Assembly (NCBI GenBank): GCA_019359505.1
Contig: JAHHHD010000008.1
Span: forward strand, 62,001 to 126,000
Reading direction: 5' to 3'
Source: Drouetiella hepatica Uher 2000/2452
Lineage (GTDB): Bacteria; Cyanobacteriota; Cyanobacteriia; Elainellales; Elainellaceae
DNA: 64,000 bases
The notes below the pieces were generated by a model. That model was not told the DNA's origin. It saw only the letters and a program-made list of their open reading frames with translations, and made no database searches. A program made the translations under genes and the position numbers. Each line of letters starts with the position of its first letter. Position 1 is the first letter of the stretch. Positions 55,893 to 64,000 of this stretch are shown here, in pieces.

Positions 55893-56220
55893 CCTTGTGT
55901 CTCTAAAAGTGCAGATAAAACTGTGCTTTGAGAAATAGACTCAGCTATCAAAAAGAATAGACTTTCATCTATGTATTTAACTTTAATCATTGAAATTAGT
56001 CTTTATCGTACATCAACGATCGCCCAAAGGGAATCCAGCTGCCATCAACAGATTTTTCAAGAGATATAAGCAAAACTAATGTTCGCTGATACCGCTTTAA
56101 AATCTAAACGGGGCAGATATTTTTTGTGAGTCACACTCCGCGTGACTCGCAAAAAATATCTGCCTTACAACCAGTTTAAATGGGTATAAGGGTAGCAGCT
56201 TTCAATAAACAATAAATTCT
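55893..56220. other. Upstream region of ndhF, no gene
   Basis: 328 bp between two co-directional genes. It contains the NACHT terminator hairpin (56112-56164) and presumably the promoter of ndhF. I cannot place the CO2-responsive regulator site. Confidence 0.45.
56112..56164 (-). terminator. 23-bp hairpin after the NACHT gene
   Basis: GGCAGATATTTTTTGTGAGT and CAC pair with 56142-56164 with one mismatch around ACTCCGC. The T6/A6 block inside the stem resembles the other symmetric hairpins of the window. Confidence 0.7.
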
Positions 56221-58539
56221 TTAACAGATGTAGCGAACGATCCGAATACCATCCCAAGCAGGAATTTTATCTGTGCGCTGTGGGTCACGTTTCTGGTCGT
56301 ACCATAGGTCACGCGATTTAATACCGTGAGTCACAACGCGATCGCCATCCCAGCACCAGCAGCTAATTGAGACTGCGCCAGAATGCTGCTGAACCTCATC
56401 AAGAGTAGGCAATCGAAAGCGAAATTCTCCCATAAAGACGGCAGCTTCGCCCTCTAGATAAGTCTCGCCCAAAGTGCTGCTATGTTGAGTTAGCCACTCA
56501 CAAAACGCCTTGGCATCGCTGGCTCGGACACCAACGATCGCCTGATTTGCCGTTCCGGGCGGGAAGCGATCGCCTGTCCAATACTGCGGCTGATAGTTCT
56601 CACCAGAGAGCCGCTTTTCGTCTACAAAAAGCTGATACTCCGCACAGCTCACATAGCCCATGTCAATTTCGGTGCGATCGTCAATGCGGAGCAACTTATG
56701 GAGGCGGCGCTGGAGCTTTACCTCTGCGGCTAGTTTAAAAATGGCTGGATCGATCGCCTCCAACCCTTGCTCTAGTCTCTCTTCCAGCTCTTTACGGACT
56801 TTGCCATCCTCAACGCTCAGGCTCTCCTCTAGGCAGTCATAAGCCAGAGTTAGAGTCTCCACTGTGCCCTTTTGCAGCGCTGTCCAGATCAGATAACTAG
56901 CATCGCTTTGGGCAGCATAAAGGCGAGTCGTTTCCTCCCACCAGGGATTGTCAATATGTCGAGCCAGCAGCAGTTCTTGTTGGCTTTCCTTTATCTGAGC
57001 TGAAGCCAGATACTCCTGAAAGCTTTTGTGGGCAAAGGCATATTTGCCTGACTCTTTTTCCAACAGCAGACCGCTGATATTTTCGACCTGCCTCAGAAAC
57101 TCCTCTGGTGAAACGCGGTCTCCCGCCACCGCCACCAGCTTTTTTTGAATCAGTAAACTTCCTTGCAGCAAGGTAAAGTCACTCGACTCTTTCCGCATTC
57201 GATTCAGCGCCAAGACTTGCAGCACCGATCGCTTCTGAAGAGCAGTAAGTTTGTCGGGCAACCCCTTAGCCTCTTGTCGCCGTCCCAGTAACACATCACA
57301 AATTTCGGCATATAGCTCTACTCTGCGTCCAGGCAGCGCTCCCCGATAGCAGTGAACGGTCGCAATCATGGTGAGCAGCAGCGGGTTCAGCGCCATAGCT
57401 GCGATCGCCGGACTGTACTGAATCCGCTTAATCAGATCACGCGACTGCTGCTCGGCGTGATGGCGCACTCCCCGATCATCTCTGCCCAACCCCCGCATGA
57501 TCTCATTTTGCAAATACCAGTTTTGGATAAACTGCTGCATTTGCTTCAAATCAAACGGCAGGATCTCCAGCAACATACCGACCTGCATCAGTGGAGCCGA
57601 TCGATAGCCAAAGGGACGCGACGTGAGAATAAACGGCGTAGTCGGGTAGCGCTGAATCTGGCGATCGCACCACTGGCTCACCTGCTGCCGTCTGTGCGGA
57701 TCGGCAACCTCGTCTAGTCCGTCCAGCATCACCAGACACCTGCCCTGCTTCAGTCGCGTCTCAAACCAGTGGGGCGATCGCCTCAGCTCTTGGAGGCTTT
57801 CCTGTTGATCCATTAAGGCTGCCAGCGTTGGCGGTGAATCGGTAGCGATCGCCTCCTGCACGTCCCGCAAATACAGCAGTATCGGGATCAGTCGAGGGAC
57901 TCGCTGATGTGTAGGCTGGCGAGAATTTTGGGCATAGCTGAGCGCCAAATGTTCTAGCAGCGTGCTTTTGCCCGAACCCGGAGGCCCCAAGATCACCATG
58001 CGTCGAAAGCTAGGTTGCTGTGGCAAGACCGCCAAAAAATCCCAGATGCCCAGCTTGTTATTTTCTCTAGCCTGAATGAGCGTCTGGATGAGGTCAGAAG
58101 GGACGCGATCGGCACTCTCAGGAGCCACCCGCAATGGCACAAACACCTTCTGCAAGTCCAGGGAAAAAGAGCCTTTAGTTTTTAATCCCTGAACGCGGAA
58201 ATCTCGCAGTCGATAGATTAGCGTCTGGTAATACTTGCCCTGAAATTGTCCGGTGACGCTCCACCACAGCAATAGAGCAAACTGCTCAACCTGGCTGACA
58301 CTCCACTCTGCCAAAGCATCCAGACGCGGATCAAGCTTGGTGAAAAACTTGAGCAGAAAGGTGAGAATAGCGGTGCCGAGCAGGGAGACGATCGCCCCAC
58401 CCCAGTTTCCCTGCAAGCCAAAATGCACGGTCAAGCCCACCCCTGCTCCGGGCAACCCCCAACTCAGCAGAGTGTCCTGAACCAGCTTTTTAATTTGTTC
58501 AATAAATGAAGTCTGCGGATTGGGGGAAGGTTGCGTCAT
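56221..58539 (-). CDS. Membrane-anchored NACHT NTPase with formylglycine-enzyme-like C-terminal domain
   Basis: 772 aa. Two hydrophobic segments lie near residues 30-65 and about 85-98 (LPGAGVGLTVHFGLQGNWGG region, then FALLLWWSVTG). The NACHT NTPase has Walker A LGPPGSGKSTLLE (184-196) and Walker B CLVMLDGLDEVAD (268-280), plus the downstream helical segments of STAND proteins. The C-terminal 150 residues (EIDMGYVSCAEYQLFVDEKR, AKAFCEWLTQHSS, FRFRLPTLDE, GIRIVRYI) match the FGE-sulfatase (SUMF1, C-type-lectin-like) fold, probably a ligand-binding head. It resembles conflict-system sensors. The trigger and output are unknown. The ATG at 58539 is chosen as the start. Confidence 0.88.
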   Translation of the reverse strand: MTQPSPNPQTSFIEQIKKLVQDTLLSWGLPGAGVGLTVHFGLQGNWGGAIVSLLGTAILTFLLKFFTKLDPRLDALAEWSVSQVEQFALLLWWSVTGQFQGKYYQTLIYRLRDFRVQGLKTKGSFSLDLQKVFVPLRVAPESADRVPSDLIQTLIQARENNKLGIWDFLAVLPQQPSFRRMVILGPPGSGKSTLLEHLALSYAQNSRQPTHQRVPRLIPILLYLRDVQEAIATDSPPTLAALMDQQESLQELRRSPHWFETRLKQGRCLVMLDGLDEVADPHRRQQVSQWCDRQIQRYPTTPFILTSRPFGYRSAPLMQVGMLLEILPFDLKQMQQFIQNWYLQNEIMRGLGRDDRGVRHHAEQQSRDLIKRIQYSPAIAAMALNPLLLTMIATVHCYRGALPGRRVELYAEICDVLLGRRQEAKGLPDKLTALQKRSVLQVLALNRMRKESSDFTLLQGSLLIQKKLVAVAGDRVSPEEFLRQVENISGLLLEKESGKYAFAHKSFQEYLASAQIKESQQELLLARHIDNPWWEETTRLYAAQSDASYLIWTALQKGTVETLTLAYDCLEESLSVEDGKVRKELEERLEQGLEAIDPAIFKLAAEVKLQRRLHKLLRIDDRTEIDMGYVSCAEYQLFVDEKRLSGENYQPQYWTGDRFPPGTANQAIVGVRASDAKAFCEWLTQHSSTLGETYLEGEAAVFMGEFRFRLPTLDEVQQHSGAVSISCWCWDGDRVVTHGIKSRDLWYDQKRDPQRTDKIPAWDGIRIVRYIC

Positions 58540-58636: not shown

Positions 58637-58685
58637 GAGTTATTTTTTGAGAGCTGCGCGGAGCACAGCTCTCAAAAAATAACTC
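58637..58685. terminator. 20-bp perfect hairpin with T6/A6 block
   Basis: GAGTTATTTTTTGAGAGCTG (58637-58656) pairs exactly with 58666-58685 around a nine-base loop. It lies in the 322-bp gap 58540-58861 between the divergent NACHT gene and a small membrane-protein gene. In this position it may be a repeat or a regulatory stem rather than a terminator. Confidence 0.55.
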
Positions 58686-59144: not shown

Positions 59145-60986
59145 TTAAACCTGTGAACTAACCTGAGACTTGGGCTGCCAACGCTTAAATTGAGTGACTG
59201 CCACAGCCGTTACCAGCGTACCAACCGCGATCGCTACCACATACAAACCGCCTTGGCTCACAGCATTGGGAATCGCCAGCACAAAGATGCCACCATGGGG
59301 TGCCCGGAGACTACAGCCAAACAGCATCGACAGTCCACCTGTGATAGCAGAACCCAAGATACAGGCCGGGAGAACTCTCACCGGATCTTTTGCCGCAAAG
59401 GGAATTACACCTTCTGTGATGAAGGAAATGCCCAGCACCGCTGCCACTCGACCTGCCTGAAGCTCATCTTGGTTAAACTGTCGCTTTGCAATTAGGGTCG
59501 CCAATGCCAATCCCAGCGGCGGAGTCATTCCGGCTGCCATCACTGCCGCCATCGGCTGATCCACGTTGCTAGCCAGCAGCCCCACTGCAAAGGTGTATGC
59601 CGCCTTGTTCACCGGGCCTCCCATATCGATCGCCATCATTCCCCCCAGCACCAAGCCCAGCAGCACCGCATTAGTTTGCCCCATGTTCTGCAAGAAAGCC
59701 GTCAGACCATCCATCACGGCTTTGATGGGCGTGCCGAAGACATAAAACAGCAGCAGTCCTACCGCCAGAGTTGAGAGTAGAGGAATAATTAGCACCGGTT
59801 TCAGCCCCTCAAAGTTGGCAGGCAGATTCAGTTTTTCTCGCACAAACAAGGCAATATATCCGGCAAGGTAGCCTGAGAGAATGCCGCCCAAAAATCCCAT
59901 GCCTAGGTTTGCCGCCAGCATCCCGCCAATCAGACCAGGAGCCAAGCCGGGGCGATCGGCAATGGAAAACGCAATAAATCCCGACAGGACGGGCACAATT
60001 AGCGCGAAGGCCGACTTACCCCCAATTTGTAGCAGCGCATCGCCAAGGCTTCCCGGCTCTGGTTTTAAGCCAAAGACAAAAGACAGAGCAATAATTAAGC
60101 CTCCTGCCACGATCACGGGCAGCATGTAGGAAACCCCAGTCAGCAAATGCTTGTAGGGACCCGATCGCCTAGCCGACTGCTCAGCCTTAGCCCGTTGAAC
60201 TGACTGTAAATAGTCACCCTCTGTAGTGCCAGACAGACTAGAAGCTTCAGCAGGGAGAGCCAGAGCCGCTTCAATCACCGATCGTCCGGATTTTAACGCC
60301 TGCTTGGTGGAAGTCTCATAGACTCTTTTTCCGGCAAAGCGAGAGAGATCGACGTGAGTATCTGCCGCAATCACCACAGCATCTGCTTGGGCAATTTCTT
60401 CAGGAGTGAGCGAATTTTTTGCACCGACAGAACCCTGAGTTTCCACCCGAATATCATGCCCCATTTCGACGGCAGCCTTGCGCAGGGCTTCGGCCGCCAT
60501 GAAGGTATGGGCAATACCTGTAGGACAGGCCGTAATGCCCACGAGCCGAGCGCGCTCGACCGCTGGGGGCGTGGCAACAACGGAGGGAACGGTTGCGGGA
60601 ATCGCCCCTCTGTCTCCTTCCACTGCATAGGATTTCACGTTGGATGTAACATAAGTATCCCTACCCCTCTGCTGCCCCTGTTGAACCGCCTCTTCAATCA
60701 CCGTCCGAGTTTCTCGAATTGCGCGACTCGTAGAGGTTGCATAAATGGGTTTGTTGATGAATCGCGAAGCATCCACATGGATATCTGCAGCTGTAATCAC
60801 AATATCGGCAGCAGCGATCGCTGCATCAGTCAGTGGCGAGTTCACACCATTGGCACCTTGTGTTTCCACCTGGATGTCATAGCCCATCATCTCAGCCGTT
60901 TTTTTAAGCGCTTCAGCTGCCATGAAGGTATGGGCAATGCCTGTAGGGCAAGCTGTCACCGCCACAATTTTTTGAATGGATTTCAT
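59145..60986 (-). CDS. fruA: Fructose PTS transporter, IIB'-IIB-IIC
   Basis: 613 aa. Two IIB domains come first, each with the phosphorylated cysteine motif TACPTGIAHTFMAAEAL (Cys13 and Cys154), joined by a linker around residues 105-145. The IIC channel follows (residues about 275-600, about 10 helices; LTGVSYMLPVIVAGGLIIAL, MAIDMGGPVNKAAYTFAVGL, SFITEGVIPFAAKDPVRVLP). It imports fructose while phosphorylating it to fructose-1-phosphate. Order fruB-fruK-fruA matches the E. coli fru operon. The first IIB copy may be degenerate in function; both keep their cysteine here. Confidence 0.95.
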   Translation of the reverse strand: MKSIQKIVAVTACPTGIAHTFMAAEALKKTAEMMGYDIQVETQGANGVNSPLTDAAIAAADIVITAADIHVDASRFINKPIYATSTSRAIRETRTVIEEAVQQGQQRGRDTYVTSNVKSYAVEGDRGAIPATVPSVVATPPAVERARLVGITACPTGIAHTFMAAEALRKAAVEMGHDIRVETQGSVGAKNSLTPEEIAQADAVVIAADTHVDLSRFAGKRVYETSTKQALKSGRSVIEAALALPAEASSLSGTTEGDYLQSVQRAKAEQSARRSGPYKHLLTGVSYMLPVIVAGGLIIALSFVFGLKPEPGSLGDALLQIGGKSAFALIVPVLSGFIAFSIADRPGLAPGLIGGMLAANLGMGFLGGILSGYLAGYIALFVREKLNLPANFEGLKPVLIIPLLSTLAVGLLLFYVFGTPIKAVMDGLTAFLQNMGQTNAVLLGLVLGGMMAIDMGGPVNKAAYTFAVGLLASNVDQPMAAVMAAGMTPPLGLALATLIAKRQFNQDELQAGRVAAVLGISFITEGVIPFAAKDPVRVLPACILGSAITGGLSMLFGCSLRAPHGGIFVLAIPNAVSQGGLYVVAIAVGTLVTAVAVTQFKRWQPKSQVSSQV

Positions 60987-61059
60987 AATATCTAATTGTT
61001 AACTAAAAGCCTTTCGTAAAGTTGTCAAACTAGAACCAAACCTTTTCTACCAAAATTTT

Positions 61060-61998
61060 CTACAGCGTTTCCACCCTCACCTCCTGCATCAAGGACTCGA
61101 TCGCCTCTTGAGGGGGCAGTCTAGGTCCCACCTGGCTGAGTGCGCCCATGGAAAAAGCAGTTGCAAGTCGCGCACAGTCAGAGAGAGAAAATCCTCGCAA
61201 TTTACCCATGATCAAGCCAGACACCATGGCATCTCCCGCTCCCACCGTGCTAACCACCTCAATTTTGGGAGGGCGAGCAACGACGATCGCATTGGCTTCG
61301 GCAAAAATAGCTCCCTGGGCACCCATAGAAACCACGACGCATTCAATCCCTTTGCTCAGAAGGTCTTGAGCCGTTTGGACGATCGCTGCCTCAGTCTCTA
61401 AACGCTGACCGCACAACTCCTGCAATTCTTCCACGTTGGGCTTGATAGCATAGGGCGCAAAGGGAATTGCCTGACGAAAACTCTCGCCGCTGGCATCCAA
61501 AACCACGGTTTTGCCCTGAGCTTTGAGCCGAGCGACTAACTCGCCATAGATGGCAGGGGACAGCCCGTGGGGAAGGCTCCCAGCAAGGACAAACCAGTCG
61601 TGGGCGATCGCCAAATCATCAATTACCCGGTGCAGGGTTGCCAGATCGGCAGCGATCGGCGGCTGACCCGGAAAATTAATATCCGTAACTTGGTTGAGCA
61701 GAGTATCGGTAATTTTGATGTTGACGCGAGTTTTACCAGCCACAGGGACAAACCGATTTTGGATGCCTTGTTGCGCAAAAAAGGTTTGAAATAGCTCGGC
61801 GTTGTCTTTTCCCAAAAAACCAGAGACTGAAACAGAACAGCCAAAGTCCGCCAAAAACGAGGCGACATTAACGCCCTTGCCGCCCGGATCAGACTGTTCC
61901 CACTCGACTCGGTTCACCTCTCCGGCTCGAAAGTTAGGAATAGAAACCGTTTGATCAACGGCTGGGTTTAGGGTAATGGTAGCAATGCTGGGCTTCAT
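61060..61998 (-). CDS. fruK: 1-phosphofructokinase
   Basis: 312 aa, PfkB/ribokinase fold. It begins MKPSIATITLNPAVDQTVSI, the family's usual opening; the substrate motif DPGGKGVNVASFLADFG and the catalytic anion-hole motif VSTVGAGDAMVSGLIMG (Asp base) are intact. It converts fructose-1-phosphate to fructose-1,6-bisphosphate. It lies between the HPr-EI gene and fruA on the same strand. Confidence 0.94.
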   Translation of the reverse strand: MKPSIATITLNPAVDQTVSIPNFRAGEVNRVEWEQSDPGGKGVNVASFLADFGCSVSVSGFLGKDNAELFQTFFAQQGIQNRFVPVAGKTRVNIKITDTLLNQVTDINFPGQPPIAADLATLHRVIDDLAIAHDWFVLAGSLPHGLSPAIYGELVARLKAQGKTVVLDASGESFRQAIPFAPYAIKPNVEELQELCGQRLETEAAIVQTAQDLLSKGIECVVVSMGAQGAIFAEANAIVVARPPKIEVVSTVGAGDAMVSGLIMGKLRGFSLSDCARLATAFSMGALSQVGPRLPPQEAIESLMQEVRVETL

Positions 61999-62119
61999 GG
62001 CGGTTGTGGCAAGGCTTCAGGGTAGGTATGGCAGGCTGGACGATCGCCGAACCGATCGCGGCAATCGACTACTGGCTCAAAAGTTACAGGCTCGTTACAG
62101 GCTCGTTGCAGGTCAAAAA

Positions 62120-64000
62120 TCACAGGGCGCGAACTTCCTGAGCCGTGCGACACTTCAAGGCGCGGGTGGCCAATTCCTGCGTTTGCGACCAAGAGAGCGT
62201 CCGCAGCTTAGCTTTAACTGCCGCAACGCTAGGAATGCTGACGCTGAGTTCTTTGACTCCTAGCCCCGCCAAAATTGCGGCTCCCTTTGGATCTCCGGCA
62301 ATGCCGCCACAGACTCCGACCCACTTCCCTGCGGTATCGGCAGCTTGTACCGTCTGATGAATCATCCGCAGCACAGCCGGATGTAAGCCATCAGCCTGTT
62401 TGGCCAGAGTAGGATGTCCCCGATCCATTGCTAAGACATACTGGGTCAGATCATTGGTGCCGATCGAAAAGAAATCGACTTCCTTGGCAAACTCGTTCGC
62501 CATCACGACCGCAGAAGGCACCTCAACCATCATGCCAATCTGGACAGGTTCAGCGCCTATTTCCAGCCGCACTTCTTCAGCAATTTGGCGAGCCGTCCAC
62601 AGGTCTTCTAGAGTAGAAATCATGGGAAACATGATCGCGATCGTCCCCAATTGGGAGGCGCGAAAGATGGCTCGCAGCTGCGGTCTAAAGAGGTCGGGAC
62701 GCTGTAGACAAAGACGAATGCCCCGCACGCCTAGAAAGGGATTTTCTTCGGCTGGTAGGTTGAGGTAGGGCACTGCCTTGTCACCGCCGATATCAAGCGT
62801 GCGAATAATCAGCGGCAGCCCGTTGAGGGCGCGCGTCATCTGTCGGTATGCCGCAAACTGCTCTTCTTCTGACGGCGGCTCGACTCGGTTAAGGAACAAA
62901 AACTCTGTGCGGAGCAGCCCCACGCCCTCGGCTCCGGCATTTACCGCCTGTTCTGCTTCTGCTGGCGCACCGATATTTGCCACCACCTCCACCCGGTGTC
63001 CATCCGTCATTAAAGCAGGCTGATAGCAAGAGAGCTGTTCGGCAGCCCGGATTTCCTGCAAATTTTGCTGAGCGATCGCTGCCTTATCCAAATCCGCCTG
63101 GTCGGGCTGCGGATATAGCGCACCGCTTTCCCCATCCAGAATGCAGGGAATGCCGTCTGCCAGGTTTAGCACTGTCTCTCCAGCCCCCACGATCGCCGGA
63201 ATGCCTAGCGATCGGGCGATGATGGCGCTATGGGAAGTGGGGCCGCCATAGGCAGTACAGAAGCCAAGGGTAAGACTAGGATTGAGTCCTGCTGTATCAG
63301 AAGGAGTCAGATCTTCAGCAATCAAAATAGCGGGGCGATCGGGCAAGCTCGGCTCATCCTCCACCTTGTCTGCCAACAGCCGCAGCACCCGTCGCCCTAC
63401 ATCCCGCAGATCGGTTGCTCGTCCCGCGATCAAGGCATCGGAGAGCTTTTCTAACGAGTGCGCCCGCTGCTCAAAAGCCTGTTGCCATGCCCAAGCCGCG
63501 CTGCGATTGGGCTGGAGATCGGCGATCGTGGCTGCCATTAAATCCGGATCATCTAGAAATTCTTGATGCGCTAGAAAGATGGCGGCTTTCCCAGCGCTCG
63601 ATCGCTCCTTCACATCGTTATAAAGCTCTTGGAGCTGTGCTTTTGCCATCTCGATCGCCTGATGCAGCTTCAGCTCTTCTGCCACCGGATCTTTTGCCGT
63701 CGCATCGAAGGAGATCTTGCCGCGCTTGAGCTGAAACAGAGTGCCGATCGCCAGTCCGGGAGATGCCGAAATTCCAAAAATGGCGGGAGAATCGAAGCGA
63801 AGGGAATGCTCCGAAGGAATGGATATCTTCTCTTCAGGCTCATCGTCCAGCCCCGCTACAATCGCCTTTTGCAAAGCCTCTAGTGCCGCATCCGCATCAG
63901 CACCCTGAGCCATTAAGAGAACCGATCGGCCCCCTTCTACCCCCAGCTTTAGCAGGGACAGCAGGCTTTTGGCATTGGCTGTCTGGTTGCCGTAGCGCAC
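62120..64000 (-). CDS. fruB: PTS multiphosphoryl transfer protein (HPr-Enzyme I fusion), 5' end outside window
   Basis: The open frame enters from the right edge. The first 55 residues seen are the end of an HPr domain (NQTANAKSLLSLLKLGVEGG). They are followed by Enzyme I: GISASPGLAIGTLFQL, the phosphohistidine loop GGPTSHSAIIARSLGIPAIV, RTEFLFLNR, and the PEP-binding barrel ending VGVCGGIAGDPKGAAILAGL. Enzyme I takes phosphate from PEP and passes it to HPr and then to the fructose IIA/IIB. A IIA domain could lie upstream, outside the window, as in FPr-type fusions. The first gene of the fruB-fruK-fruA operon. Confidence 0.93.
   Translation of the reverse strand: MRYGNQTANAKSLLSLLKLGVEGGRSVLLMAQGADADAALEALQKAIVAGLDDEPEEKISIPSEHSLRFDSPAIFGISASPGLAIGTLFQLKRGKISFDATAKDPVAEELKLHQAIEMAKAQLQELYNDVKERSSAGKAAIFLAHQEFLDDPDLMAATIADLQPNRSAAWAWQQAFEQRAHSLEKLSDALIAGRATDLRDVGRRVLRLLADKVEDEPSLPDRPAILIAEDLTPSDTAGLNPSLTLGFCTAYGGPTSHSAIIARSLGIPAIVGAGETVLNLADGIPCILDGESGALYPQPDQADLDKAAIAQQNLQEIRAAEQLSCYQPALMTDGHRVEVVANIGAPAEAEQAVNAGAEGVGLLRTEFLFLNRVEPPSEEEQFAAYRQMTRALNGLPLIIRTLDIGGDKAVPYLNLPAEENPFLGVRGIRLCLQRPDLFRPQLRAIFRASQLGTIAIMFPMISTLEDLWTARQIAEEVRLEIGAEPVQIGMMVEVPSAVVMANEFAKEVDFFSIGTNDLTQYVLAMDRGHPTLAKQADGLHPAVLRMIHQTVQAADTAGKWVGVCGGIAGDPKGAAILAGLGVKELSVSIPSVAAVKAKLRTLSWSQTQELATRALKCRTAQEVRAL

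What the first reader, a model, noticed from the sequence alone, without database searches (positions are those of the whole stretch)
56221..58539. Membrane NACHT NTPase with a formylglycine-enzyme-like head
The order hydrophobic segments, NACHT, helical region, FGE-sulfatase/C-type-lectin-like domain is unusual. The FGE-like part is short and likely binds a ligand rather than oxidising cysteine. Known: NACHT proteins act in bacterial antiphage defence, and C-type-lectin-like domains of this kind are common ligand-binding ends. Inference: a stand-alone sensor whose membrane segments act as effector (pore or anchor). No reverse transcriptase is in the window, so diversification by a retroelement cannot be claimed.
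Basis: partly seen in the sequence, partly recalled or inferred. Interest (0 to 1): 0.65.

Follow-up and report, generated by a model that had tools for sequence, protein, structure and literature searches.

The report
NLR-like switch with stripped-down lectin tail
This cyanobacterial gene encodes an intact relative of the NACHT immune-switch proteins, with a short hydrophobic start and a cut-down lectin-like end that cannot be an enzyme; it is a variant of a known kind, but its relatives carry fast-changing repeat arrays at the place where such lectin folds normally bind their targets.

Summary
ORF 56221-58539(-), 772 aa, has hydrophobic N-terminal helices (one strong membrane-like segment, one weak), a NACHT module (Pfam E 9e-15; predicted fold matches NLRC4, Z 14.9), a helical region and a C-terminal FGE/C-type-lectin (CLec) fold, confirmed by modelling (CarF Z 11.4, TvpA 10.6, human FGE 8.4). 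The domain is minimal: the profile matches only the FGE N-terminal half and the catalytic-cysteine segment is gone, so it is no oxidase. The genome (99.8% complete) has no reverse transcriptase and no template repeat: no DGR. The gene is under purifying selection. The module occurs in 51 of 388 cyanobacterial genomes, so it is not housekeeping. TM-NACHT-CLec proteins are already published (PMC10907252). New at family level: before the last strand of the mini-CLec, where CLec proteins bind ligand, relatives carry inserts of about 160-250 aa, some of them in-frame 12-bp minisatellites (up to 33 copies) that diverge faster than the rest. The window's lineage has probably lost the insert. Best reading: an NLR-like, oligomerising, membrane-acting switch with a CLec sensor. 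Antiphage function is plausible, untested.

The parts
56221..58539 (-). Whole gene, 772-aa NACHT / mini-CLec protein
   Evidence: ORF list; 17 loci encoding relatives, of which 3 from the same genus at 72-87% identity; dN/dS 0.03-0.22 outside the tail where it can be estimated
58411..58482 (-). Weak hydrophobic helix, residues 20-43
   Evidence: Kyte-Doolittle about 0.8; predicted helices 8-27 and 29-42 at low confidence
58339..58404 (-). Membrane-like helix, residues 46-67
   Evidence: Kyte-Doolittle 1.95; predicted helix 46-69; hydrophobic stretch kept in the genus
57517..58005 (-). NACHT domain, residues 179-341
   Evidence: PF05729 E 8.9e-15
57961..57987 (-). Walker A, GPPGSGKST, residues 185-193
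   Evidence: sequence; most of the motif invariant in 15 orthologs
57706..57738 (-). Walker B, CLVMLDGLDEV, residues 268-278
   Evidence: sequence; DGLDEV invariant in 15 orthologs
56686..57504 (-). Helical and winged-helix region, residues 346-618 (HD1/WHD/HD2-like, then short helical repeats)
   Evidence: model residues 104-589 match NLRC4 8fw2, Z 14.9, 374 aligned, rmsd 11.3
56224..56685 (-). Mini FGE/C-type-lectin domain, residues 619-772
   Evidence: PF03781 N-terminal half; hhalign E 6e-7; fold match CarF Z 11.4, TvpA Z 10.6, human FGE Z 8.4
56239..56325 (-). Short linker before the last strand, residues 739-767; site of the insert in relatives
   Evidence: low-confidence stretch 742-760; alignment A3; higher dN/dS
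58642..58680 (.). 39-bp palindrome upstream of the gene, one of 98 sites in the genome
56119..56157 (.). 39-bp palindrome downstream of the gene, same family

Best explanation
A bacterial NLR-like (NACHT-type STAND) switch. Inferred working: at rest the protein is held in an ADP-bound, monomeric state. A cue is sensed at the C-terminal half (helical repeats plus mini-CLec). ATP binding opens the NACHT module, protomers assemble into a ring or disc, and the clustered hydrophobic N-terminal helices act on the membrane, as a pore or as an anchored platform, to stop growth or kill the infected or stressed cell. Shown: the domain order, intact Walker motifs, the NLR-like predicted fold, the CLec fold without FGE catalysis, purifying selection and patchy distribution. 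Inferred: the cue, the oligomerisation, the membrane action and the defence role.
For: NACHT E 9e-15. Model residues 104-615 match NLRC4, NOD2, NLRP3 and NAIP at Z 11-15. Walker A/B largely invariant in 15 orthologs. C-terminal CLec fold, a general ligand-binding scaffold (PMC6328139). Hydrophobic helix 46-67, with multi-pass versions in orthologs L059 and L063. Patchy distribution, 51/388 genomes. The C-terminal cargo is swapped among relatives (none, repeat insert, GUN4, GUN4 plus full FGE), as expected of a sensor end. bNACHT proteins have an N-terminal effector, a central switch and a C-terminal sensor, and some stop phages (PMC12169576). NACHT-CLec proteins have been proposed as antigen sensors (PMC10907252).
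Against: No defence-island evidence for this gene: in the genus it sits beside ndhF3-ndhD3-cupA. No defence-family profile matches beyond the P-loop. The N-terminal membrane signal is one strong helix and is weak in some orthologs. The canonical CLec ligand site is nearly absent in this copy.
Confidence: 0.5

Rival explanations
1. A physiological-stress switch rather than an antiphage one: the C-terminus reads an internal cue (in relatives tetrapyrrole, through GUN4), and NACHT assembly at the membrane triggers dormancy or programmed death when photosynthesis fails.
For: Several relatives carry a GUN4 domain directly after the mini-CLec (GUN4 Pfam E 7e-37 in L059). GUN4 in cyanobacterial conflict proteins has been read as a sensor of photosynthetic status (PMC7159879).
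Against: The window's copy has no GUN4. GUN4-bearing forms lie on other branches of the tree.
Confidence: 0.25
2. A membrane-anchored regulator tied to the neighbouring inducible CO2-uptake complex (ndhF3-ndhD3-cupA).
For: Immediately upstream of ndhF3 (NdhF3 family E 2e-279; CO2 hydration protein E 3e-232), same strand, and conserved in three same-genus genomes.
Against: The link is not found around orthologs of other genera. A palindromic repeat lies in the gap of about 330 bp. NACHT proteins are not known for this role.
Confidence: 0.08
3. A decaying family member: loss of the insert from the sensor end has left a NACHT protein on the way out.
For: The insert-free state changes at least twice on well-supported branches. 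The tail has the highest dN/dS (0.27-1.34 on 19-33 codons) and low model confidence.
Against: The ORF is intact in the window and its three same-genus orthologs. dN/dS is 0.03-0.22 in every other region where it can be estimated, mini-CLec included.
Confidence: 0.1

Closest known systems
NACHT-CLec DGR targets of Thiohalocapsa PB-PSB1 (DGR 3 locus; PMC10907252)
   Same: NACHT centre, C-terminal CLec domain, localisation predicted partly periplasmic, i.e. membrane segments in some
   Different: Those CLec domains carry DGR variable regions; here there is no RT or template in the genome and the variable-region stretch is missing
bNACHT antiphage proteins (e.g. bNACHT25; PMC12169576)
   Same: N-terminal effector, central NACHT, C-terminal sensor layout; NLR-like module
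   Different: bNACHT25 has a nuclease effector and an NCH1 end; here hydrophobic helices and a mini-CLec; no activity data
Animal NLRs (NLRC4, NOD2, NLRP3)
   Same: NBD-HD1-WHD-HD2 arrangement in the predicted fold (Z up to 14.9)
   Different: No CARD/PYD and no LRR; identity 15-19%
[quoted passage not shown]
   Same: Fold; N-half sequence motifs (DA..FC.WL..., RLPT..E)
   Different: About half the length; no catalytic cysteine pair; central part absent
Cyanobacterial FGS- and GUN4-bearing conflict proteins (PMC7159879)
   Same: Same sensor-type domains joined to NTPases in cyanobacteria
   Different: Those are mostly vWA-MoxR/VMAP ternary systems; no such partner gene was seen next to this gene

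Membership tests
NACHT-type STAND NTPase | NACHT domain with Walker A and B | tested here: met
   PF05729 E 8.9e-15; motifs conserved in 15 orthologs
NACHT-type STAND NTPase | NBD-HD1-WHD-HD2 fold | tested here: met
   Predicted fold, residues 104-589, NLRC4 Z 14.9, 374 aligned, rmsd 11.3
bNACHT antiphage proteins | Protection against phage that depends on NTPase and effector | not testable with these tools
   Needs phage challenge
bNACHT antiphage proteins | Recognisable N-terminal effector | tested here: inconclusive
   Only hydrophobic helices, one strong; no effector domain in Pfam
Avs / other PADLOC defence families | Match to a curated defence model beyond the P-loop | tested here: not met
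   Best match mad8 E 3e-4 over the P-loop only; no Avs model listed
Formylglycine-generating enzyme | FGE/CLec fold | tested here: met
   Human FGE Z 8.4, 128 aligned, rmsd 4.1; TvpA Z 10.6; CarF Z 11.4
Formylglycine-generating enzyme | Catalytic cysteine pair in the segment before the final strand | tested here: not met
   Residues 739-767 hold no cysteine (sequence; alignment)
DGR target protein | Reverse transcriptase in the genome | tested here: not met
   No RVT_1 match in 6.42 Mb, 99.78% complete; the same search rings in 10 of 11 relatives
DGR target protein | Template repeat matching the gene's end apart from adenines | tested here: not met
   Only short chance-level matches to the last 460 bp elsewhere in the genome; templates near the relatives' RTs do not fit this gene
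Proteins with a GUN4 sensor | GUN4 domain | tested here: not met
   Not among the families listed for the window protein; present in relatives L057, L059, L062

The most novel reading that the evidence does not exclude
In this family the ligand-site loop of a CLec sensor on an NLR-like protein is diversified not by a DGR but by slippage and unequal exchange of an in-frame 12-bp (or 6-bp) minisatellite that encodes Arg/Asp/Leu-type repeats: a retroelement-free way to vary an immune sensor. The window's lineage is a derived form that has lost the array.
Probability: 0.2. Interest if true: 0.75.

Novelty: new variant of a known kind. Interest (0 to 1): 0.42.

Why it matters
The gene itself is a clean member of a growing class of bacterial NLR-like proteins with a lectin-type sensor, and shows that the FGE-like end can shrink to a non-catalytic minimum. 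The family matters more: the loop position that DGRs hypermutate in other CLec sensors holds nothing or a repeat array, or the domain is followed by GUN4 and a second, full FGE. This gives a natural series for testing whether that loop is the specificity element of bacterial NLRs, and whether repeat slippage can replace retroelement mutagenesis.

Tried and rejected
DGR diversification: rejected by whole-genome search for RT and template. The genome of relative L054 does hold true DGRs next to full-FGE genes (L084, L092; 10-13 adenine-only differences in 70 bases), but their templates do not fit this gene. The RT in a same-genus genome (L083) looks retron-type and has no TR/VR pair. Housekeeping gene: rejected, 51/388 genomes. 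Recent mobile gain: not supported, same locus in the genus; plasmid relatives are only NACHT-level, none covering 80% of the query. Sequence search against solved structures gave only weak hits (PorK/GldK, ToxD, E about 0.01-0.03). Foldseek alone gave no significant match for the C-terminal domain (CarF E 0.28); the second alignment did. The full-length model did not test the C-terminus, since NACHT filled the list. Profile of the insert's end (A5): found in 21/388 genomes, the strongest places being loci of this same family; whether the weak ones lie in other proteins was not settled. Promoter scan found none and terminator-like sites were at chance level. A first dN/dS script failed on an import and was rerun.

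Full report
WHAT IS THERE. The minus-strand ORF 56221-58539 codes for 772 aa. Pfam finds NACHT at residues 179-341 (E 8.9e-15, above cut-off) and the N-terminal half of FGE-sulfatase at 625-720 (E 1e-3, below cut-off, profile 39-122 of 255). Two orthologs pass the FGE cut-off over the same half (L052 25.5 bits, L056 28.2 bits, cut-off 23.3), so the weak match is genuine. NCBIfam shows only a partial NACHT resemblance to the antiphage protein EruA (32 bits against a cut-off of 1000), and PADLOC only P-loop matches.

FOLD. A model of the whole protein (pLDDT 71) matches NLRC4, NOD2, NLRP3 and NAIP over residues 104-615 (best Z 14.9, 374 residues; rmsd is high, 11.3, as is common for a multi-domain match). 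A separate model of residues 600-772 (pLDDT 81, pTM 0.79) matches CarF (Z 11.4, 139 residues, 3.7 A), the Treponema DGR variable protein TvpA (10.6), ToxD (10.6), SenA/EgtB (8.6-9.9), PorK (7.2-9.7), human FGE (8.4) and then animal C-type lectins (about 5). All 50 rows are FGE-type or lectin-type proteins, so the fold assignment is firm, although Foldseek alone was not significant. Profile-profile comparison with full FGE domains from relatives supports homology over the 'PITGV..DA..FC.WL...RLPT..E' stretch (E 6e-7).

NOT AN ENZYME. In FGE the catalytic cysteines lie in the stretch before the last strand (established knowledge of human FGE). In the window protein that stretch, residues 739-767, is short, contains no cysteine and is the least confident part of the model. 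The FGE-like part is therefore a fold, not an oxidase. In CLec-fold DGR proteins the sequence between beta3 and beta5 forms the ligand site (PMC6328139). By position that is the same stretch; the residue-level equivalence is inferred from strand order in the model, not measured.

MEMBRANE PART. Residues 46-67 score as a membrane helix (1.95) and residues 20-43 do not reach the usual threshold (0.8). Orthologs range from weak single helices to about six segments (L059, L063). A membrane hairpin is plausible; a pore is inference.

NO RETROELEMENT. The genome (6.42 Mb, 99.78% complete) has no RVT_1 match and no second copy of the gene's end. The same RT search rings in 10 of 11 genomes of relatives, so it works. 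In the genome of L054 two RT loci carry template/variable pairs differing only at adenines (10-13 of 70 bases), beside full-FGE proteins; these are real DGRs but do not target this gene. Close relatives show purifying selection (dN/dS 0.03-0.22 outside the tail where dS is not saturated), with the short tail higher (0.27-1.34 on 19-33 codons). The mini-CLec changes two to three times as fast as the winged-helix region at nonsynonymous sites but shows no sign of hypermutation.

DISTRIBUTION AND CONTEXT. Same-genus orthologs (72-87% identity) share the locus: just upstream of ndhF3-ndhD3-cupA on the same strand. Orthologs elsewhere in cyanobacteria (45-62%) have other neighbours. The helical plus mini-CLec module is in 51 of 388 cyanobacterial genomes (39 of 334 good ones), mostly one copy each. 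The window's genome has about a dozen further NACHT-like places with HTH-like, TIR-like or CHAT-like starts and HEAT, WD40 or pentapeptide-type ends as read by eye; none showed an FGE end in the parts read.

THE SERIES OF TAILS. Alignment of relatives shows that between the '..CWC..GD' hairpin and the closing '..PAWEGIRIVR' strand the family carries a short linker (window genus, L028, L058, L106) or an insert of roughly 160-250 aa (L052-L056, L063, L105, L108-L116 and others); other relatives have, after the closing strand, GUN4 alone (L059-L061, L120, L122, L124, L125), GUN4 with a full FGE (L057, L062, L118, L119) or a full FGE alone (L117). In L063 the insert holds 33 copies of a 12-bp unit in frame, in L105 27.6 copies, in L052 a 6/24-bp array. 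Between L052 and L056 the insert is 49% identical with 27 gapped columns, against 88% for the part upstream. In lineages without clean repeats the contrast is smaller (71 against 85%, 85 against 92%). On a tree built without these columns the insert-free state needs 4 changes (at least 2 on well-supported branches), and the window clade sits inside a supported group of mainly insert-bearing proteins. Loss in the window's lineage is the simplest reading; direction is not proven because the root is unknown.

COMPARISON WITH THE LITERATURE. NACHT-CLec fusions, some predicted to span the membrane, with DGR-variable CLec ends are described (PMC10907252); that paper says CLec domains on STAND proteins had not been characterised experimentally. 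FGS and GUN4 domains in cyanobacterial conflict systems are described (PMC7159879). bNACHT proteins defend against phage with N-terminal effectors and C-terminal sensors (PMC12169576). The searches in the held library brought up no description of Arg/Asp/Leu minisatellite inserts in such a domain, but the library is open-access only and no search was aimed at the insert by name, so absence there is weak evidence.

VERDICT. The gene is a well-preserved new variant of a known kind. The unusual part lies in its relatives.

Noticed in passing
L063:8202-8600, L105:2091-2415, L052:6084-6386: In-frame 12-bp or 6/24-bp minisatellites coding for Arg/Asp/Leu-type repeats inside the mini-CLec of orthologs; up to 33 copies, diverging faster than the rest of the protein.
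   Followed up: partly
window 56119-56157 and 58642-58680: Two copies of a 39-bp palindrome (ATTTTTTGNGAG...CTCNCAAAAAAT) flank the gene; 98 sites in the genome, none expected by chance in the window. Function unknown, possibly terminator-like or a miniature mobile repeat.
   Followed up: partly
window 59145-64000: A fructose PTS gene set (EIIBC, 1-phosphofructokinase, PTS enzyme I) in a cyanobacterium; from general knowledge PTS genes are uncommon in cyanobacteria.
   Followed up: no
L084 and L092: True DGRs in the genome of L054, with template/variable pairs differing only at adenines, beside full-FGE proteins.
   Followed up: partly
L083:1336-2469: A 377-aa retron-type reverse transcriptase in a same-genus genome, without a TR/VR pair nearby.
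   Followed up: no
L063:5599-8909: The Microseira wollei ortholog is split by a frame change between the NACHT part and the mini-CLec part; assembly error or real break not resolved.
   Followed up: no
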